Source of the DNA: a virus
DNA: 22,623 nucleotides
Virus record (IMG/VR): IMGVR_UViG_3300030105_000971
Location: 1-22,623 of that record
Reading direction: 5' to 3' (one strand)
The notes under the pieces are model-generated. The model made no database searches, was not told where the DNA came from, and was given only the letters and a program-made list of their open reading frames with translations. A program made the translations under genes and the position numbers. Positions 6,253 through 21,002 of the stretch are shown piece after piece; the stretch's first letter is position 1, and every line of letters starts with the position of its first letter.

Positions 6253-8706
6253 CTATACGAGTCTCCAATCGTTAGAAGCAACATAGACCATAGTAACAGC
6301 ACCATACTCAGATTCAATGCGGATTGATTCCTGACCATCAATGCGGTGGTCAGCGGAGCCTTTGAGGATCTTGATGTAGTTGGACTGTGAAACACCTGTC
6401 ATTCCCTTAACAGTGACAACATCGCCGGGAACGGGAGAGGCTGGTAGAGTCACGGTTGCGGCGGCTGCGATGTTGGCGAAGTAGTTATAACCCTCAGCTA
6501 AGGTACCACCATCAGCGATTGCCATAGCGCTTGTGTTGGTAACAATGAGTTGACCACCAATAGCAGTTAGACCGCCACCAGCAAGACCAACAGCAACGTC
6601 GTCGTTGACCATACCGGTCTGGACAGCGTCATTACCGATGGTGACAACACCAGCATTTGTCATTGATACATCACCGCTTAGAACGAATGAACTGTAGTCA
6701 GTTCCGTCAGCAATCATAATATGCGTATTAGTGGCAGCGAGACTGTCATCAAAGATGCTCATCTTAGCGGGAGTAACTGCATCGTTAGCAAGTTTGCCAG
6801 TTGTAACATTAAGATCAATAATCTCAGCGGTACCGACAGAGTCGTCAGCCATCTGGGACTGCTGGACAGCGTTGGCAGCAATGTGCTCGTTGCCAACAGA
6901 GTCGTCAGCAATCTTAGTACCATCAACAATATCAGCAGCAAGGTGGATGCGATCAATAGAGCCATCAACGTACTGGTCAGAATCAACAGAGTTAACACTC
7001 ATGTGAATGAGGTCAACAGAGCCATCAACGTACTGGTCAGAATCAACAGAGTTAGCACTCATGTGAATGAGGTCAATAGAACCATCAACGTACTGATCAG
7101 AATCAACAGAGTTTACACTCATGTGAGAAAGATCGACTGAACCATTTACCAATTCTGATGAATCAACTGAGTCTGCACCCATGGCAGCAGCATCAACTGA
7201 ACCAGCAGCAAAATGTGCTGTGTCGATAGAGCCATCAACGTACTGATCAGAATCAATAGAGTTTACACTCATGTGAACGAGGTCAATAGAACCATCAACG
7301 TACTGATCTGAATCAACAGAGTTTGCACTCATGTGAATGAGGTCAATTGAGCCATCAACGTACTGATCAGAATCAACAGAGTTCACACTCATGTGAGCAA
7401 GGTCAATAGAACCATCAGTAATGTGCTCAGAATCGACAGCATCATCAGCCAACTTAGTTCCGTCAATTGCATCAGCAGCCATCATACTTGTGGCGATACC
7501 TAGAGCCTTGACGCGAAGAGCATCACCAGAAATCTCGACTGAGGCGCCATCGACACCAACAGAGAGAACACCAGAAGCAGCAATAAGAGCATCACCAGCA
7601 ATTGTGGCAGCGTAATCGAGCATTGATTCCTTCTTCATTAGACTATCAGAATCCAAGAAGTAGAAACTATCGTCAGCCACGGCGGCAACAGCAGAAGCAA
7701 CACCATCAAGACGGACAGTTCCACCCATCTGAAGGGTGGCGGAACCGGAGATAGCACCGGAGCCAGAAAGGCTGATTGCAGTGCCAGACTTAAGTTCATC
7801 TGAGAATCTGAAGTCTGCGCCAGTAAATCTGTCAACAGAGGCAATTCTTTTGTTGGAATCAAGGATTAGAGCCTTGCTAGCCTCAGCCGTACCGGCTGCG
7901 CCTACATCAACATAGTTAAGCTCAGTAGCAGTTGCAGTAACAGCAGCAAGCTTAGTCAAGTCAGCAGCAGTAAGATCGGCGTCATCGAGGTAGTTAAGCT
8001 CAGCAGCAGTTGCAGTAACACCAGCAAGCTTAGTCAAGTCAGCAGCAGTAAGATCGGCGTCATCGAGGTAGTTAAGCTCGGCAGCGGTTGCAGTAACACC
8101 AGCAAGCTTAGTCAAGTCAGCAGCAGTAAGATCGTCGTTATCAAGGTAATTGAGTTCGGCAGCAGTTGCAGTAAGAGCAGCAAGCTTAGTCAAGTCAGCA
8201 GCAGTAAGATCGTCGTTATCAAGGTAATTGAGTTCGGCAGCAGTTGCATCAACAGCAGCAAGTTTGGTGAAGTCAGCCTGAATTAGACCAGAAACACCAT
8301 CAAGCAAGTTGAGTTCAGTAGCAGTAGAAGTAACAGCGGCACCAGCAAGCTGGAGACCGCCAACCTTGGCGACGTTGAAGTCAACATCGTTGGCAAGAAC
8401 TGCGGACTGAGCGGCGAGAGTTAGAATATCGGTATCACCATCAGCACCAATGGTTGAGCCGTTATCGACAGCAAGTGACTTGAGGGCGACATCACCGTCA
8501 GCGTCAACTGCAAAGCCGGGCATTGTGATTGTGCCGAAGGTGGCGTCACCATCGGAATCAAAACTTGCACCAGAAACACCGGCAGAAGCAGAAAGACTGG
8601 CGGCGCTAGTGGCACCGACAGAAGAGAGAGAAGCAGCAGAGACCGCCTCTTCGAATGTGGTAGAGCCGCTAAGTATTGCGGGTCCTACCTGAAATTTATA
8701 AGCCAT
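6253..8706 (-). CDS. Large repetitive fibre-like protein, 817 aa
   Basis: This is probably a long fibre shaft protein. It opens MAYKFQVGPAILSGSTTFEE. Residues 147-267 hold five 26-residue repeats (TKLA.VTATAAELNYLDD.DLTAAD), and about 423-622 hold roughly twenty 10-residue units that alternate around S-[IV]-D (for example SIDLIHMSVN and SVDSDQYVDG). The last 80 residues or so form the small beta domain shared with three neighbours (TLPASP, a glycine-rich turn, HRIDGQESI, aromatic end). Such repeats are known from aquatic T4-like phage fibres and probably build a trimeric beta shaft. The start has a strong AGGAGG nine bases upstream. A hairpin stands before the gene and a terminator after it. 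Whether it decorates the tail or the head cannot be told. Length may vary through recombination between repeats. Confidence 0.85.
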   Translation of the reverse strand: MAYKFQVGPAILSGSTTFEEAVSAASLSSVGATSAASLSASAGVSGASFDSDGDATFGTITMPGFAVDADGDVALKSLAVDNGSTIGADGDTDILTLAAQSAVLANDVDFNVAKVGGLQLAGAAVTSTATELNLLDGVSGLIQADFTKLAAVDATAAELNYLDNDDLTAADLTKLAALTATAAELNYLDNDDLTAADLTKLAGVTATAAELNYLDDADLTAADLTKLAGVTATAAELNYLDDADLTAADLTKLAAVTATATELNYVDVGAAGTAEASKALILDSNKRIASVDRFTGADFRFSDELKSGTAISLSGSGAISGSATLQMGGTVRLDGVASAVAAVADDSFYFLDSDSLMKKESMLDYAATIAGDALIAASGVLSVGVDGASVEISGDALRVKALGIATSMMAADAIDGTKLADDAVDSEHITDGSIDLAHMSVNSVDSDQYVDGSIDLIHMSANSVDSDQYVDGSIDLVHMSVNSIDSDQYVDGSIDTAHFAAGSVDAAAMGADSVDSSELVNGSVDLSHMSVNSVDSDQYVDGSIDLIHMSANSVDSDQYVDGSVDLIHMSVNSVDSDQYVDGSIDRIHLAADIVDGTKIADDSVGNEHIAANAVQQSQMADDSVGTAEIIDLNVTTGKLANDAVTPAKMSIFDDSLAATNTHIMIADGTDYSSFVLSGDVSMTNAGVVTIGNDAVQTGMVNDDVAVGLAGGGLTAIGGQLIVTNTSAMAIADGGTLAEGYNYFANIAAAATVTLPASPVPGDVVTVKGMTGVSQSNYIKILKGSADHRIDGQESIRIESEYGAVTMVYVASNDWRLV
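6841..7440 (-). repeat. Tandem 30/60-bp coding repeats in the fibre-like gene
   Basis: About ten 60-bp units, each made of two 30-bp halves, encode 10-residue units starting S-[IV]-D. Near 7140-7240 the phase shifts by one half unit with more diverged copies, which suggests unequal crossing-over. The units are in frame throughout. Confidence 0.9.
7906..8268 (-). repeat. Five tandem 78-bp coding repeats in the fibre-like gene
   Basis: Five in-frame copies of a 78-bp unit encode TKLA.VTATAAELNYLD-type 26-residue repeats beginning at residues 147, 173, 199, 225 and 251. The copies are nearly identical in DNA, so they are recently homogenised. Confidence 0.9.
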
Positions 8707-11196: not shown

Positions 11197-11661
11197 CTAT
11201 TTGAGTGCTTGCCAAATCTTACCAGCATTTCCCATGATTGAACTAATATCTACGCCTGCATCGGTAGGGTCATCTCCTAAAACATTTGGCTTGTGTGCGG
11301 TGCCTGGGGTGCCGGACTCTTTTAGAGGCGCTGTGCCTTCAAAAAGATCTACACCATTGTAGGCATCGGCGCCAATGGAATCTAAGAGTTTTTTACGATG
11401 TTCTAGTAGCTTCTGGTTCACCTCTTGGGACTTACGCTTCATTTGCAAGTCTTCATTAAATAGCTTGTCGTTGGGAATGTTAGTTCTTTTTCCCAAACCC
11501 ATGTGGGTGTTTGGTTCTCTTGTCTCGACTATTGGCTGTTTTGTTAAGCCGGCGCTGACTTGAGATACAACCTCTGCAAGAAGCCCCTCTTCTATAAGGA
11601 CTTCTTGGATGCACTCTTTTACGACTGGCTTGATTAGTTTCTTTAGTTGTGCTTTATTCAT
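11197..11661 (-). CDS. Address-bearing putative prohead protein, 154 aa
   Basis: The ATG overlaps the previous stop as ATGA. Residues 1-25 (beginning MNKAQLKKLIKPVVKECIQE) form a strongly amphipathic helix ending LIEEG, which fits an [L/I]-x-E prohead protease site at 22-24. The rest is polar, with a charged helical segment (about 72-92) and a C-terminus ending GNAGKIWQALK. There is no membrane segment. Proteins with the KPVVKECI.EVL.EEG start seem recurrent in marine T4-like phages, but I cannot name a function. I infer an internal head or core protein, from the N-terminus and from its place between the other address-bearing genes and bS21. Confidence 0.75.
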   Translation of the reverse strand: MNKAQLKKLIKPVVKECIQEVLIEEGLLAEVVSQVSAGLTKQPIVETREPNTHMGLGKRTNIPNDKLFNEDLQMKRKSQEVNQKLLEHRKKLLDSIGADAYNGVDLFEGTAPLKESGTPGTAHKPNVLGDDPTDAGVDISSIMGNAGKIWQALK

Positions 11662-12842
11662 TTATCACTCTTTTTTGTAATGTTTTTTAATATATGAAAC
11701 AAAATCTTGTTTTTTTGTCCCTTTTTTGCTTGAGTGGCTGTATAGATCCTGCTAATCGCTTGTTTGACTTTCGCATCTTTTTTATTATAGGCGTCCCGCA
11801 TTTCTTGTTTTCTACTAACAAAATCACCACGGTCAAACATTTTTTCTATCTTGAACGCTTCTTTGATATAATGAGATGGCAAAAATGGGGCAACAAAATC
11901 AACGAATGTTTTTAAGTCATTGTTAAATGTATTTGTACTCTTGTCTTTTTTTCCTCTTTTCGCCTTCCAAGAGTCATAAAGTGTATTGTGGTATTTAACA
12001 CCAAAGTTGCTATTAATTTTATAAACTGGCTCACTCGTTACTTCAGCAGGAGTTTCGTCGGTCTGGGGTGCCTCACTGGGGGATGAAAACAGATCTATAA
12101 ATTTTGTTCGTATCTCCACTCTTTTATCATCTAAACCAAAAGCAGATAATCTTTCTGCAATTTTAGGTAAAAGTTTTTGTAATATAGTATCTTCAGTATT
12201 TGGAAGTTCATCAAATATTTTTATCCAAGCTTCTCTATTTTCTGGGTTTCCATATTTACTACCAGAAAGTTGGTTATAAATATTAGAAAACTCTTGTTTT
12301 GTATTTGATGATAAAAGTTTGTCGATTAAGGCGTTTCTTGCTTCTTCTGTAAGCGGGGCACCTGACTCAGCATCAAAATTAGCTTCAGGTGCTGCTTGAG
12401 GTTCTTTATTAGGCGCCTCATCAGGAGCGGCTGGTGATGCGGCAGCAGGCTTTTCAAACTTAACTGTATTCGCCCGTCCCCAGTAGTTTAAAGCCTTGAC
12501 TACTGCTTTTTGTTTTTGCTGGTCTAATCCAAGTTTAGCAATACCTTGAAGAATCTCTCTTGTAGTTTCTGATGAAAACACTCTATCTTGTTCTGATTTT
12601 GAGCCTTGAAGGGTTACAGCCTCTAACATAATGTCTTCATCACTGGCTGCGTTAGCAACCAAATTTACGATTGCTATTTTTTGTTCTGGAGTTAATGCTC
12701 CAGCTAATTTATTGAGAATGTTGATTAAAGAGTCTTTATTATCTTTTGAGTTTAAACCAAAAATAGTTTGTCCCTCTTCGTGGAGGAACTTACGCCAACT
12801 CTCTGTTAGGAGTTTGTCTTTCTCAAAGCTACTCCAAGTCAT
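11658..12842 (-). CDS. Address-bearing putative internal head protein, 394 aa
   Basis: The start overlaps the protease gene by 14 bases, with GAGG nine bases upstream. Residues 11-23 (LLTESWRKFLHEE) resemble a T4 capsid-targeting sequence, with a likely cleavage site LHE at 20-22. Three parts follow: a helical region (35-125), an Ala/Pro-rich linker (131-155), another helical region (165-250), a second Ser/Pro/Glu linker (252-271), and a basic C-terminal domain (280-394) with many Lys and a KKGQKNK segment. The linkers and basic end would suit a packaged, DNA-associated protein or a core protein. No enzyme motif is visible. Because it sits next to the protease, a gp67/gp68-type core role is a reasonable alternative. 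Confidence 0.75.
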   Translation of the reverse strand: MTWSSFEKDKLLTESWRKFLHEEGQTIFGLNSKDNKDSLINILNKLAGALTPEQKIAIVNLVANAASDEDIMLEAVTLQGSKSEQDRVFSSETTREILQGIAKLGLDQQKQKAVVKALNYWGRANTVKFEKPAAASPAAPDEAPNKEPQAAPEANFDAESGAPLTEEARNALIDKLLSSNTKQEFSNIYNQLSGSKYGNPENREAWIKIFDELPNTEDTILQKLLPKIAERLSAFGLDDKRVEIRTKFIDLFSSPSEAPQTDETPAEVTSEPVYKINSNFGVKYHNTLYDSWKAKRGKKDKSTNTFNNDLKTFVDFVAPFLPSHYIKEAFKIEKMFDRGDFVSRKQEMRDAYNKKDAKVKQAISRIYTATQAKKGQKNKILFHILKNITKKSDK

Positions 12843-13434
12843 CTTTCAAGACCTCGTTTAACAACCTGTTGATGCGGTCTGCTTTTGTAAACACTCTGTT
12901 GTTGAACTCTTTTGCCTCTCTCATCATAAAAGCGTTTGGTGTGGAGGGCTCGGACACAAAGTCAAAGCAGATAAGTTGGAAGTCTTCTTGGACTACGACC
13001 TTACCTGCGCCTTCTGATACTGATCCCATACCGCGAGAAGAGATGCCAAGTTTTACGCCATCTTCTACAAGAGCACGCAGGGTCTTGCCGGCGTCTGTAT
13101 TGAGTACCTTTACTTTGCCCATAACTGCTTTGTCTTCCATCCAAATAGATGTGACCATATGAGAAGCATTCTTTAGGTTAATGACTGAATCATCGGGGTG
13201 ATCAAGTTCGCCAAGTGCTCTGTTTTCTTTTACAAGCTTCTTATAGTTCTCGACCTCTCGCACCAAAACCTTGTGAGGGTAGACGCGACCATTACCGTTT
13301 TGGACATCTGCTTCTTGTAACTTACCGGAAAGCACCATCCCGCCGTTGGCGACGAAGCGCTTTTCATCTTCAGTGAGCAGATCTTGGCATACGCCGCCTT
13401 CGCATAGTTCGTAGTATTCTCGTAGTAGTTTCAT
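12829..13434 (-). CDS. 21: Prohead core protease, gp21-like serine protease
   Basis: This 201-residue protein matches T4 gp21 (212 aa). NGNGRVYP at 46-53 corresponds to the NRNKRLYP strand, GELDHP at 75-80 carries the catalytic His (H79, T4 H85), and GISSRGMGS at 130-138 carries the nucleophile (S132, T4 S140). It belongs to the herpes-protease-like prohead protease fold. In T4 the enzyme, inside the prohead, cuts scaffold, capsid protein and internal proteins after [L/I]-x-E and then destroys itself. Its own N-terminus MKLLREYYELCEGG offers such sites (LRE, LCE). One base separates it from the stop of the preceding gene, and it overlaps the following gene. It is flanked on both sides by genes with address-like N-termini, presumably its substrates. 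Confidence 0.95.
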   Translation of the reverse strand: MKLLREYYELCEGGVCQDLLTEDEKRFVANGGMVLSGKLQEADVQNGNGRVYPHKVLVREVENYKKLVKENRALGELDHPDDSVINLKNASHMVTSIWMEDKAVMGKVKVLNTDAGKTLRALVEDGVKLGISSRGMGSVSEGAGKVVVQEDFQLICFDFVSEPSTPNAFMMREAKEFNNRVFTKADRINRLLNEVLKDDLE

Positions 13435-13435
13435 C

Positions 13436-13924
13436 CTATATAACCTTGCTCAATAGTGCTTGGGCGCTTAGTAATCTTTCTGCCAAGCCCCAACGCATAC
13501 CTTTGTTGGCATTAGAGAGTCTGTGCATAGAGCCACCTCGTTGATCATCTTTAGTATCAAAAATGTCCAAGAGTGTTTCTCTATCAGGTATAGTGGCTAA
13601 CGCTGTGCTTATTTGTTCTGGGGACACACCAACAATCTGCATCTCCTCTTCATTCATAGAAGCATCGTCGTAGGCAAGACGGCTTTTATCCGTCTGAGTT
13701 GCGCTCCACAAATCATGGTTTGCTCTAGCTATCATAGTGTCTTTTGAGTTTCCGCCGGTCTGTGTTTCAACAAAGCGCAAATACTCTTGAGGATCATAGG
13801 GGATACCAAGAGCTTCTTTCGCATTTGTGGCAGCAGCAAATAGCTCGTCAAATACCTCTTCAGTCTCGGGGTGGTATTCGCCCTCGTTTATAAACTTTTT
13901 CCAATTTTCGATTAATAGTTTCAT
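13436..13924 (-). CDS. Address-bearing putative internal head protein, 162 aa
   Basis: The ATG at 13924 is chosen over one seven codons earlier because AAGGAA lies five bases upstream of it, and because it gives MKLLIENWKKFINEGE. This is very close in plan to the T4 internal protein address MKTYQEFIAE followed by Ala, with cleavage expected after INE (12-14). The remaining 148 residues are acidic and helical, without membrane segments or a known motif, and include a QTGGNSKDTMIARANHDLW stretch. A small GC-rich hairpin (13938-13952, GCGGG/CCCGC) lies just upstream of the ribosome binding site. The gene directly precedes the protease. Packaged cargo or core protein is the inferred role. Confidence 0.75.
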   Translation of the reverse strand: MKLLIENWKKFINEGEYHPETEEVFDELFAAATNAKEALGIPYDPQEYLRFVETQTGGNSKDTMIARANHDLWSATQTDKSRLAYDDASMNEEEMQIVGVSPEQISTALATIPDRETLLDIFDTKDDQRGGSMHRLSNANKGMRWGLAERLLSAQALLSKVI

Positions 13925-13957
13925 TTGTTTTCCTTGTGCGGGCATTACCCGCGCGAG

Positions 13958-14364: not shown

Positions 14365-14823
14365 TTATTTCTTTACCTGATTGTTGTTGAATTTATTAGA
14401 TAAGTATTTTTGAAGCTCATCATTGACATCTGGAATAGGGGCTAGATCGTCCATGCTTTCCATTGCCTTCAACAGATCATTAATAAATGCCACCTCAATT
14501 GGATCATCTACAATTTTAGATACATCATCATCGACGTTTAGCCTGTCTAAGCCAGTCGCTGATTTAAAAGAATCTTCCGCACCATATAACTTGCCTACAA
14601 TTTCTTTGGCGTCTTGAACACCCTTCCAAAGCGAAAAGATGTTGCTAATAACCGGGATTTGTTCTATTGCTGCTTCAGCAGCTTTCTTACCTAATTCCTT
14701 GCCAGCCTCTTTAGCTCTATGAGTTTTAATAAGCTTTCTTAAATCTCCGACTGTTTCAAGAGGTGCCTCTTGCAAAACAAACTTGTCCCAACTTTCCATT
14801 ATGACTTTCATTTCGCTTGACAT
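14365..14823 (-). CDS. Address-bearing putative internal head protein, 152 aa
   Basis: AGGAG before the ATG at 14823 supports this start. The N-terminus MSSEMKVIMESWDKFVLQEA resembles the T4 internal protein address, with a predicted cut after LQE (17-19). Residues 48-69 form a long Ala-rich then hydrophobic stretch (AIEQIPVISNIFSLWKGV) that could be an amphipathic or membrane-active helix. The C-terminal part is acidic. It lies three genes upstream of the protease, in the same class as its WxKF neighbours. A packaged protein able to interact with membranes after DNA entry is one speculative reading. A core protein is the conservative one. Confidence 0.75.
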   Translation of the reverse strand: MSSEMKVIMESWDKFVLQEAPLETVGDLRKLIKTHRAKEAGKELGKKAAEAAIEQIPVISNIFSLWKGVQDAKEIVGKLYGAEDSFKSATGLDRLNVDDDVSKIVDDPIEVAFINDLLKAMESMDDLAPIPDVNDELQKYLSNKFNNNQVKK

Positions 14824-18208: not shown

Positions 18209-19789
18209 TCACTTTATTATCCACATGTATTGGGAATATGTATTTTTTGCTTCGTTCATTTTACTAGTTTGGTCCTCTCCTGTGTAGCCTATTTGTCCCT
18301 TAATTTGAGTATTTAAAACCGTCCTTGAGGTTATGATGGCATCTACAAAAGCTTTCTGATAGTTTAGGTCACGAGCGTTTGATTGTAGTGCTGTGTCTTT
18401 AACCCAGCAGCAAATCGCAAGAGCCATCACTAAATCGTCGTTATATCCTCGCATCGATTGTGGCTTGCCGTTATACCAAATGAATGTTCTAAATTCATTT
18501 GCCAAACGAGAAGAATACGTTTTAATTAGTTTGTTTCTTATAAACTCTTCTAGTTTGGCTACAATCAGTGGTCTGGTCTTTGAGGTGGTCGAAAAACCAG
18601 CGATAGCGCCAGGATTATATTCTCCGAGATGTTGGTCAATATATTCGTGTGTAGACTTGACGGAATAGTAAAGGTTTGGATAATTGTATTCTACAAGCTT
18701 ATCAATGACTGTGTATCCAATAGAATTGTTCTCTACCACCATCATCGCATTTCCAAACTCTCGACCCACTTGGTTTAGCATATTAGCATAAAGGTCGGGT
18801 GTTGGCTTGCCTTGATACTCTCCAATGATCTCCATTGTCTCAATCTTGAGAATATGGAATGTGGAGCTATCGGCGCCGTCGCCCCTTGCTACGTCAGCAG
18901 CCATAACATAGCTACAAGTTGGATCGTATTCTTCCCAAATCCAAAAGTTTCTATCAAAGCCGGTTTTGTGCTTTGGTTCCTTTACATTCGCCAAGATCCA
19001 TTCTAGATTATCTGGATCGATGACGGTCTCGCCAGATGTGTTGAAGTTACATTGTAACTCCTGGGCAATCTGGCGGCGGTTCATGTTTCTGGTTTCTTTC
19101 TTGAACCATTGTTCGTCGCGCTCGGGATGGACATCCCACATAAGAGTTGTTAGATTAAAATTATTTTCATTGTTCTCGGCACCAACGCAAGTTTTGTGGA
19201 ACCAGTTACCAACGCCGTTGGGGGTTGAGATGGCAATACAGCGACCACCCGTGGATAGCGTTGGATACAGACCAGTCCAGAGACCCTCTAGTCCTTCAAT
19301 GTGTGCTGCCTCATCAAGAACTAGAAGTGATAGTGCCTCTGAGCGACCAGCATCGCCTGAAGTAGAAGCAGCTTTGATTGAAGAACCATTAGACAACTCA
19401 AAAGACGTGCGGTTGTCTGTCGTGATACTTGCTATCCTGATCCAGTCAGGAAGGTTCTTCATTATGTTTTTGACTTTGCGAACCAAGTTACCTGCTGTTT
19501 CAAACTTGGTAGCCATAACAAGGATAGCCTTGTCGCGATGAAACAGCATCATCCAAACAATGTAGCCAGCAGTAATCGTTGAGATTCCTAGCTGGCGACC
19601 CTTGTTAATAACATTGAAGCGATAATCGTTGAAGTCATTTAGTAACTGATCTTGATAATCATAAGTCTTAAACAACATAAGCCCGTGCATCGGGTGAGAG
19701 ATGCGGGCATAGTTTTTAAGAAAGTAAGAGGGATCTTTACCGCACTTAATAACTTCTTTGAGTATTTGCTTTTTCGTTAGTTTGGACAT
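18209..19789 (-). CDS. 17: Terminase large subunit, gp17-like
   Basis: This 526-residue protein packages DNA into the prohead. The ATPase domain has a Walker A-type GRQLGIST at 64-71, Walker B LLVLDEAA at 155-162, with E160 as catalytic carboxylate, and the coupling motif STPNG at 188-192. The nuclease domain has D299 in AADVARGDGADSS, E353 in VVENNSIG and D451/D452 in GYNDDLVMALAI, the expected acidic triad. T4 gp17 is 610 residues. The Walker A lysine of T4 (SRQLGKTT) is Ile here, while a Lys lies just before the motif (K63). It is preceded by two address-bearing genes and followed directly by the portal gene. No small subunit (gp16) is recognisable next to it. Confidence 0.96.
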   Translation of the reverse strand: MSKLTKKQILKEVIKCGKDPSYFLKNYARISHPMHGLMLFKTYDYQDQLLNDFNDYRFNVINKGRQLGISTITAGYIVWMMLFHRDKAILVMATKFETAGNLVRKVKNIMKNLPDWIRIASITTDNRTSFELSNGSSIKAASTSGDAGRSEALSLLVLDEAAHIEGLEGLWTGLYPTLSTGGRCIAISTPNGVGNWFHKTCVGAENNENNFNLTTLMWDVHPERDEQWFKKETRNMNRRQIAQELQCNFNTSGETVIDPDNLEWILANVKEPKHKTGFDRNFWIWEEYDPTCSYVMAADVARGDGADSSTFHILKIETMEIIGEYQGKPTPDLYANMLNQVGREFGNAMMVVENNSIGYTVIDKLVEYNYPNLYYSVKSTHEYIDQHLGEYNPGAIAGFSTTSKTRPLIVAKLEEFIRNKLIKTYSSRLANEFRTFIWYNGKPQSMRGYNDDLVMALAICCWVKDTALQSNARDLNYQKAFVDAIITSRTVLNTQIKGQIGYTGEDQTSKMNEAKNTYSQYMWIIK

Positions 19790-19799
19790 TCATCTTGCT

Positions 19800-20057
19800 T
19801 TACATTCTTGGATTATCAGGCATAGCATCGGACTCCGCTTCGGGTCCCATAGCATCAACGATTGTTAGCGCCGCATTCTCAATCACTCTCAACACAGATT
19901 GGGGAATTCCTCCCATGGGGAATCCTTCCTCAGATTCCAAAAAGCCAATAAACCCATCACGAATCCTGGCAGCTTGTGCCTTTCGTTCATTAAAATCAGT
20001 AGCTTCACCCATCTCTTCTTTGATAATCTGCTTTAGTCTTGCTTTTGTTAGTTTCAC
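19800..20057 (-). CDS. Address-bearing small protein, copy 2, 85 aa
   Basis: The start is GTG at 20057, overlapping the stop of an 18-codon chimeric frame as GTGA. Residues 1-16 (MKLTKARLKQIIKEEM) match the preceding paralogue except at one position and end in an IKE site (12-14) suited to prohead protease. The rest is unrelated to that paralogue: an acidic helical region with GFIGFLESEEGFPMGGIP and a Met/Asp/Pro-rich end. There is no membrane segment. It ends 10 bases before terminase. Packaged protein or small core protein is inferred. A terminase small subunit role is conceivable from position, but no DNA-binding motif is visible. Confidence 0.75.
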   Translation of the reverse strand: MKLTKARLKQIIKEEMGEATDFNERKAQAARIRDGFIGFLESEEGFPMGGIPQSVLRVIENAALTIVDAMGPEAESDAMPDNPRM

Positions 20058-20097
20058 TTTTTGTCTCCTTTAACAATAGGTCTCTTATCGTTTTTCG
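20011..20097 (-). repeat. Direct repeat copy B (87 bp, partner at 20411-20497)
   Basis: The 87 bases match 20411-20497 at 83 positions, with an exact offset of 400. The copy covers the address codons of the 85-aa gene, its ribosome binding site, and a fragment of the 3' end of the 182-aa gene that is out of place here. Confidence 0.95.
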
Positions 20098-20110
20098 TTA
20101 GTCTCAGCAT
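20054..20110 (-). pseudogene. Chimeric micro-frame at a tandem-duplication junction
   Basis: The frame ATG 20110 to TGA 20054 encodes MLRLTKNDKRPIVKGDKK. Its last 13 residues repeat the C-terminus of the 182-aa protein, and its start (context AAGATGAATG, then ACTAACGAAAAA) matches the beginning of the terminase gene (MSKLTK). It is best read as the scar of a tandem duplication that joined the terminase 5' end to the 182-aa gene 3' end. It may still be translated, since its stop overlaps the GTG start of the 85-aa gene. Confidence 0.7.
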
Positions 20111-20115
20111 TCATC

Positions 20116-20457
20116 TTAATCTATTTTAAGACCGCGAAGCTTAACGCCCCCTGGAGGTAGGCGCCGACCTCTCATAGAGATTGAAGCGGACCTCTCTGGA
20201 TCGTCATACATCTGATTGTCCTGAATAGAACGAATAAGTCCCATAACCTCTTCATCGCCGCCAGCCAAGGCTTCTAGCTCTTCTGGGGACATTTGGTCTA
20301 TGTGAGCGCGAGCAGCAAGAGCGTCAATCAATTTCTGCTCTGGGCTGCGCATTCCAGTGTCAAAGCGCGGCTCTGTTCCGCCCAGTTCATCACCAGAAGA
20401 GAAAGAATCCATTTCTTCTTTGATAATCTGCTTTAGTCTTGCTTTTGTGATTTTCAC
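20116..20457 (-). CDS. Address-bearing small protein, copy 1, 113 aa
   Basis: The GTG start at 20457 overlaps the stop of the 182-aa gene as GTGA, with AAAGGAG upstream. The N-terminus MKITKARLKQIIKEEM carries a predicted prohead protease site (IKE, 12-14). The cargo part is acidic and Gly/Ser-rich at first, then helical (SPEQKLIDALAARAHIDQMS; SPEELEALAGG), and ends in a basic RRLPPGGVKLRGLKID. It shares only the address with copy 2. A short internal head protein is the inferred role. Confidence 0.75.
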   Translation of the reverse strand: MKITKARLKQIIKEEMDSFSSGDELGGTEPRFDTGMRSPEQKLIDALAARAHIDQMSPEELEALAGGDEEVMGLIRSIQDNQMYDDPERSASISMRGRRLPPGGVKLRGLKID

Positions 20458-20497
20458 TTTTTGTCTCCTTTGACAATAGGTCTCTTATCGTTTTTCG
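20411..20497 (-). repeat. Direct repeat copy A (87 bp, partner at 20011-20097)
   Basis: This copy spans the last codons of the 182-aa gene, its overlap with the 113-aa gene and the address codons of that gene. It is probably the original arrangement, because here the upstream sequence belongs to an intact gene. Confidence 0.95.
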
Positions 20498-21002
20498 GAC
20501 GAGTGCCGAGACCACCTTGATCTAGGAACTTCTTCCAATCGGCGGCAAGACGATCTTCTGTTGCCACGCCAACAACTGCAACTTCTTCCATTCCGCCGAC
20601 TTTATAGTGCATCTTGGCTGTGACCCAAGAGCGAACTCTGGAAGAGTTTTCTACGCGAATGTCGATCTCGCCTTCCGGCTTGAGAGAGATAGTGCCCCCA
20701 CCAAGCTTGCGAGCCTCTTTCTTCAAGAACTTTACGATGTCTGCCATCTGCTGTTCTACATCTGCCTCAAAGCCATTAGCATATACTTCCTGTAAACGAA
20801 CTTCGGACATGTAAGACAGACACATCATAGGTCCATAAAACTTCACGTTAAAGCCGTCCATGACGCGCTTATCTATAAGGGGGTTCCCCTCCTCTCTCTT
20901 TAGACCTGCCTTGAGGGCTTCGCCGTCTTCGGTTAGAGCGCCGTCGTATGCGTTTGCGGAAGCTTGTGATAGAGCTTGTATAATTTCATAAACTGTAGCC
21001 AT
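20454..21002 (-). CDS. Protein of unknown function upstream of the terminase block, 182 aa
   Basis: AAGGA lies nine bases before the ATG, and two GACTATTTA-like motifs stand upstream, so this gene probably opens a long transcript that runs through terminase and portal. The protein has a helical N-terminus (MATVYEIIQALSQASANAYD) and a mixed alpha/beta middle with DGFNVKFYGPMMCLSYMSEV. A likely beta sheet follows (GGGTISLKPEGEIDIRVENS) and then a WVTAKMHYKVGG strand, and it ends RPIVKGDKK. No catalytic motif, membrane segment or address is evident. It may be a virion-assembly protein. I do not recognise the family. Confidence 0.75.
   Translation of the reverse strand: MATVYEIIQALSQASANAYDGALTEDGEALKAGLKREEGNPLIDKRVMDGFNVKFYGPMMCLSYMSEVRLQEVYANGFEADVEQQMADIVKFLKKEARKLGGGTISLKPEGEIDIRVENSSRVRSWVTAKMHYKVGGMEEVAVVGVATEDRLAADWKKFLDQGGLGTRPKNDKRPIVKGDKK

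What the first reader, a model, noticed from the sequence alone, without database searches (positions are those of the whole stretch)
19789..20497. Scar of a tandem duplication that kept the address but changed the cargo
Two 87-bp segments (20011-20097 and 20411-20497) match at 83 of 87 positions, exactly 400 bp apart. Each covers the 3' end of the 182-aa gene plus the address codons of a following gene. In the second copy the 182-aa gene fragment is joined to a copy of the terminase start: AAGATGAATG and ACTAACGAAAAA occur both at 20085-20118 and at the terminase start near 19792. This reads as a duplication from the 182-aa gene 3' end to the terminase 5' end, with a break near CGAAAAA. Yet the two genes are unrelated after residue 16, so one cargo half was replaced while its ends stayed. 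That suggests the address segment works as a recombination joint for swapping cargo, as is known for polymorphic internal protein genes of T-even phages.
Basis: partly seen in the sequence, partly recalled or inferred. Interest (0 to 1): 0.72.

Follow-up and report, generated by a model that had tools for sequence, protein, structure and literature searches.

The report
Swappable cargo-gene site beside phage terminase
In a group of mostly uncultured, T4-related phages, a slot next to the DNA-packaging gene holds interchangeable small genes that share only their first 16 amino acids (probably a tag that sends the protein into the phage head), and this phage carries the visible scar of one such gene having been added by recombination.

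Summary
In detail: 83/87 identity exactly 400 bp apart, with a fused terminase-start/182-aa-gene-tail scar. The join has 7 bp of microhomology (CGAAAAA). About 90 relatives show a polymorphic cargo site between the 182-aa gene (G182) and the large terminase: 36 of 93 sites are empty, 49 hold one gene, 8 hold two. 61 of 65 cargo genes begin with the same 16-residue address (KITKxRLKQIIKEE) followed by unrelated sequence. A terminase tree needs at least 27 changes of cargo state.

The window is a mosaic. Its flanks match L002 (93-95%). Its X1 cargo and the terminase-start copy match L103 (93%), whose G182 is only 73% identical and which has X1 alone. X2 keeps an L002-like address and an X1-family 3' end around a core found nowhere else. 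Recombination between two relatives explains it better than duplication within one genome, because the two units descend from different alleles.

The address being a dedicated recombination joint is not shown: several breakpoints lie at it, but its DNA is not homogenised within genomes.

Function is inferred: capsid-targeted internal proteins like T4 Ip1-3, with a different address. New variant of a known kind.

The parts
20454..21002 (-). 182-aa gene (G182), conserved left flank of the cargo site; no family hit
   Evidence: ORF; 456 relatives in IMG/VR; no Pfam/PHROG/NCBIfam match
20116..20457 (-). cargo gene X1, 113 aa: 16-residue address + F1-family cargo
   Evidence: 88% aa to L103 (same tail), 61-79% to most other relatives and 34-51% to the most distant
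20410..20457 (-). address segment of X1 (VKITKARLKQIIKEEM); 93.8% to L002, 85% to L103
20409..20497 (-). repeat copy 1: 3' end of G182 + RBS + address of X1
20040..20103 (-). scar ORF MLRLTKNDKRPIVKGDKK*: terminase start fused to G182 3' end, CGAAAAA microhomology at 20091-20097
   Evidence: unique among 93 sites and in IMG/VR pattern scans; ORF edges approximate within a few bases
20009..20097 (-). repeat copy 2: G182 3'-end fragment (non-genic) + RBS + address of X2
19800..20057 (-). cargo gene X2, 85 aa: address + core without relatives + X1-family 3' end (DNPRM*)
20010..20057 (-). address segment of X2 (VKLTKARLKQIIKEEM); 91.7% to L002
18209..19789 (-). large terminase (gp17-like), right flank of the cargo site
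   Evidence: Pfam Terminase_6N 7.7e-10; 98% aa to L001/L002
12829..13434 (-). gp21-like prohead protease (Peptidase_S77), expected to process the addresses
   Evidence: Pfam PF03420 1.4e-29

Best explanation
The stretch between the 182-aa gene and the terminase is an exchange site for small, address-bearing cargo genes. The address is most likely a capsid-targeting propeptide that puts the protein into the prohead core; the gp21-like protease then removes it after I-x-E. This particular copy arose by recombination between two related phages: an L002-like genome carrying X2 and an L103-like genome carrying X1. One crossover lay just downstream of the X1 address. The other joined the incoming terminase start to the resident 182-aa gene tail through 7 bp of microhomology (CGAAAAA). 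This added X1 ahead of X2 and left the 87-bp repeat and the scar ORF. Shown: mosaicism, scar, polymorphic site, cargo turnover. Inferred: capsid targeting, processing, delivery into the host, order of events.
For: Scar with 7-bp microhomology. Window vs L103: G182 73%, X1 cargo 93%, terminase 83%; vs L002: G182 93%, address 94%, X1 cargo unrelated, terminase 95%. Identity to L103 rises from about 75% to 98-100% about 20-25 nt after the address and stays above 90% to the scar. The scar's terminase start matches L103's better than the window's own. X2 tail = X1-family tail. 93 sites: 36 empty, 49 with one gene, 8 with two; 61/65 cargo ORFs bear the address. Terminase tree: at least 27 changes of cargo state, 15 of presence/absence. 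L109 vs L172 nearly identical but first cargo 110 aa vs 230 aa, edges at the ATG and about 70 nt into the second cargo gene. L038 vs L159: cargo 99%, address 71%, G182 82%. Address [ILV]xE at 12-14 in 244/247; T4 gp21 cuts after L/I-x-E and T4 propeptides are 10-19 residues (PMC9026906). S77 protease, gp23 and gp20 in the window. T4 tandem amplifications arise at 6-10 bp microhomology (PMC9391042).
Against: No phage with X2 alone was found, so that parent is hypothetical. The scar is known from one contig only. The X1 crossover lies about 20 nt after the address, where X1 alleles are homologous, so the address itself need not have paired. No virion proteomics was at hand for this group, and the address does not resemble the T4 IPIII propeptide. 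The AlphaFold model of X1 is weak (pLDDT 59).
Confidence: 0.7

Rival explanations
1. One reading: a tandem duplication within one genome of [182-aa gene tail - X - terminase start] at CGAAAAA, then replacement of the cargo of one copy.
For: The scar geometry is exactly that of a tandem duplication; T4 makes such amplifications at 6-10 bp microhomology (PMC9391042); both copies of the 182-aa gene tail share a variant (ACCTATTGTYAAAGG) found in no other fetched locus.
Against: The copies carry different X1-type 3' ends (113-aa extension vs DNPRM*) and different terminase starts, and X1 is 93% to L103 while its flanks are not. An exchange with another genome is needed in any case, so duplication alone is not enough.
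Confidence: 0.2
2. The address DNA is a dedicated recombination joint, kept alike to promote cargo exchange.
For: Exchange edges at or next to the address in several independent comparisons; address codons match more than cargo codons in different-contig pairs (0.517 vs 0.438).
Against: Same-contig addresses are no more alike than expected within lineages (153 of 300 permutations as high); starts of non-address genes give 0.462 against 0.516; in L109/L172 the incoming gene brought its own address.
Confidence: 0.15
3. Assembly artefact: two co-existing phage variants were joined in one contig.
For: Single metagenomic contig; the X1+X2 state is not seen elsewhere.
Against: The join shares only 7 bp, far below usual assembler k-mers (general knowledge); the repeat copies differ at 4 positions; reading frames and start sites are intact; both sides of the site continue into the L002-like backbone.
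Confidence: 0.07

Closest known systems
T4 internal proteins IPI, IPII, IPIII with the capsid targeting sequence (CTS)
   Same: Small, variable proteins sharing only a 10-19-residue N-terminal leader; gp21-type S77 protease in the genome; [LI]-x-E at the leader's end; polymorphic loci (PMC3012670, PMC12373910, PMC9026906)
   Different: Different address sequence: T4 IPIII (MKTYQEFIAEA) scores -13 on the address profile, real addresses mostly above 40; located between a 182-aa gene and the terminase; packaging and injection not shown
Segmental amplification in T4 (dmd-tifA)
   Same: Tandem repeat bounded by 6-10 bp microhomology (PMC9391042)
   Different: Here the two units carry different cargo from different parents, and only one extra unit is present
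Hyperplastic (hypervariable) regions of T4-superfamily genomes
   Same: Gain, loss and exchange of small genes at fixed positions between conserved structural genes (recalled knowledge; term found in papers listed, not read)
   Different: Cargo genes here almost all share one N-terminal address

Membership tests
T4 internal protein / CTS system | Unrelated proteins sharing a short N-terminal leader | tested here: met
   About 250 address genes in 111 cargo clusters, 88 of them singletons; cluster number depends on BLAST sensitivity
T4 internal protein / CTS system | Leader ends in a gp21 cleavage motif L/I-x-E and is 10-19 residues long | tested here: met
   [ILV]xE at residues 12-14 in 244/247, E14 in 242/247; motif from PMC9026906
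T4 internal protein / CTS system | Leader resembles the T4 CTS sequence | tested here: not met
   IPIII leader scores -13.3, best register 1.1. Other window genes (13436-13945, 14365-14823) have leaders that look like the T4 CTS by eye
T4 internal protein / CTS system | S77 prohead protease encoded in the same genome | tested here: met
   PF03420 E=1.4e-29 at 12829-13434
T4 internal protein / CTS system | Protein packaged in the head, leader removed, injected | not testable with these tools
   Needs virion proteomics
T4 internal protein / CTS system | Locus polymorphic between close relatives | tested here: met
   At least 27 state changes on the terminase tree; L109/L172 and L029/L103 pairs
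Microhomology-mediated tandem duplication | Junction retains one copy of a short shared sequence | tested here: met
   CGAAAAA shared by terminase start and 182-aa gene tail, one copy in the scar
Microhomology-mediated tandem duplication | Repeat units are copies of one sequence | tested here: not met
   Only the 87-bp ends match; cargos unrelated, 3' ends and terminase starts of different allele types

The most novel reading that the evidence does not exclude
The 16-residue address KITKxRLKQIIKEE is a second, previously unnamed class of capsid-targeting sequence. It feeds a large open repertoire of head-packaged proteins, possibly injected anti-defence factors, exchanged between environmental T4-like phages at fixed sites such as this one by short-homology recombination.
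Probability: 0.5. Interest if true: 0.75.

Novelty: new variant of a known kind. Interest (0 to 1): 0.58.

Why it matters
Internal-protein polymorphism was described in T-even phages of E. coli, where the three tested T4 proteins each block a distinct GmrSD restriction enzyme (PMC12373910). Here a comparable system, with a different leader, appears across uncultured T4-like phages, and its natural exchange events can be read to the base. The leader gives a sequence handle for finding packaged and possibly injected proteins without cultures. The site gives about 90 natural cases for asking how short homologies swap cargo.

Tried and rejected
X2 as a frameshifted X1: no similarity in other frames or in DNA beyond the tail. 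X2 cargo elsewhere: none in IMG/VR, INPHARED, PHROGs or NCBIfam or the fetched loci. Other copies of the scar: none in IMG/VR by two patterns or in 93 sites; so other two-gene sites, such as L136, do not show this scar. Within-genome homogenisation of addresses: a first test looked positive, but its groups were lineages rather than contigs; the corrected test is null. Codon constraint on the address: small excess after a gene-start control. Structure of X1: low confidence, mostly helical, not used for fold searches. Function by families: only sub-threshold helix-turn-helix matches for a remote F1 member. No paper in the held library prints the motif. Repoila et al. 1994 is not held.

Full report
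1. Setting. The window is a 22.6-kb IMG/VR virus record with T4-type head genes on the - strand: terminase, gp20 portal, S77 prohead protease and gp23 capsid protein. The best isolate matches of the terminase are only 42-45% (Flavobacterium phage immuto, Microcystis phage Mel-JY01), but IMG/VR holds hundreds of relatives. One relative lies in a Flavobacteriaceae MAG. That and the immuto match hint weakly at flavobacterial hosts.

2. The 87-bp segments agree at 83 positions, 400 bp apart. Between X1 and X2 lies a chimera, AAGATGAATGCTGAGACTAACGAAAAACGATAAGAGACC. Its left part is a terminase start and its right part is the 182-aa gene tail; CGAAAAA is common to both. It reads as an 18-codon ORF, MLRLTKNDKRPIVKGDKK.

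3. Relatives. I extracted 93 distinct sites between the 182-aa gene (G182) and the terminase. 36 are empty (spacer typically 13-16 bp), 49 hold one ORF and 8 hold two. 61 of 65 cargo ORFs start with the address; their remaining sequence falls into 14 families by BLAST. On a terminase DNA tree the cargo state changes at least 27 times, presence/absence at least 15 times (quick tree, so the numbers are approximate and some branches are weak). Very close pairs differ: L029 (empty) and L103 (X1) have 97-98% identical flanks.

4. Breakpoints. Window against L103: G182 73%, address 85%, X1 cargo 93%, terminase 83%. Against L002: G182 93%, address 94%, cargo unrelated, terminase 95%. The sliding comparison with L103 jumps from about 75% to 98-100% some 20-25 nt after the address and stays high through the X1 stop into the scar. 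L109 and L172 are almost identical over kilobases (11 differences in 3.3 kb from the second cargo's start, 9 of them in its first 70 nt) yet carry a 110-aa against a 230-aa first cargo; the edges are the start codon of the first gene and the region just past the second address. L038 and L159 share 99% of the cargo, 71% of the address and 82% of G182. Exchange edges therefore recur at or next to the address, sometimes with the address staying behind and sometimes travelling with the cargo.

5. History of this copy. X1's 3' extension and the terminase start after it match L103, which has X1 alone. X2's address matches L002 (92%), its 3' end matches X1 genes of L106 and L141 (17 nt, AATCCAAGAATGTAAAG), and its core is unknown. 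But the two units descend from different alleles, so I prefer recombination between two relatives over duplication inside one genome. The G182 tail shared by both copies is private to this phage among the fetched loci, so copy 2 of the tail comes from its own lineage.

6. Is the address a recombination joint? It is where many exchanges end, but selection for keeping an address on every cargo gene predicts the same. Same-contig addresses are not more alike than expected within lineages, and the excess in codon identity over other gene starts is small (0.516 vs 0.462). I call the DNA-joint idea unproven.

7. Function. Over 247 address starts, I12 and E14 are nearly invariant (236 and 242) and [ILV]xE holds in 244 (the set was chosen by an address profile, so high conservation is partly by construction). 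T4 gp21 cuts after L/I-x-E and T4 internal-protein propeptides are 10-19 residues long (PMC9026906). In the window, several head or core candidates (gp23, the 388-aa scaffold candidate, the protease, and the 154-, 152-, 169- and 394-aa proteins) show such a motif near the N-terminus, while portal and terminase do not (by inspection, not tested statistically). In a 191-kb relative about nine genes carry the address, several near the head cluster. The T4 analogues are injected inhibitors of GmrSD restriction enzymes (PMC12373910). Whether these cargos do the same is unknown; none matches a characterised family.

8. Verdict. A real exchange site with a well-preserved scar; a new variant of the T-even internal-protein theme with a different address.

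Noticed in passing
window 6815-7499 and 7827-8294: Arrays of 60-bp and 78-bp direct repeats inside the 817-aa ORF 6253-8706, as in a repetitive fibre-like protein.
   Followed up: no
window 19740-19789: Terminase N-terminus SKLTKKQILKEVIK resembles the address LTKxxLKQIIK, also in DNA (AAACTAACGAAAAAGCAA vs AAACTAACAAAAGCAA); may be chance or a further short-homology target.
   Followed up: partly
window 13436-13945, 14365-14823, 11658-12842: A second type of N-terminus (KLLIENWKKFINE, KVIMESWDKFVLQE, KLLTESWRKFLHE) that looks like the T4 CTS MKTYQEFIAE by eye; one such gene (L122 2938-3249) sits in the same cargo site.
   Followed up: partly
L209 (PAAD01000063.1): A zero-cargo relative in a Flavobacteriaceae MAG, a weak hint at the host.
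   Followed up: partly
L172 2771-3142, L109 1216-1587: Second cargo is a remote X1 relative with sub-threshold helix-turn-helix matches, so the X1 family may bind DNA.
   Followed up: partly
L075 5191-5445, L185 1003-1206: Short cargo genes that fuse an address directly to the C-terminal part of the longer F0 cargo family, suggesting modular cargo interiors.
   Followed up: no
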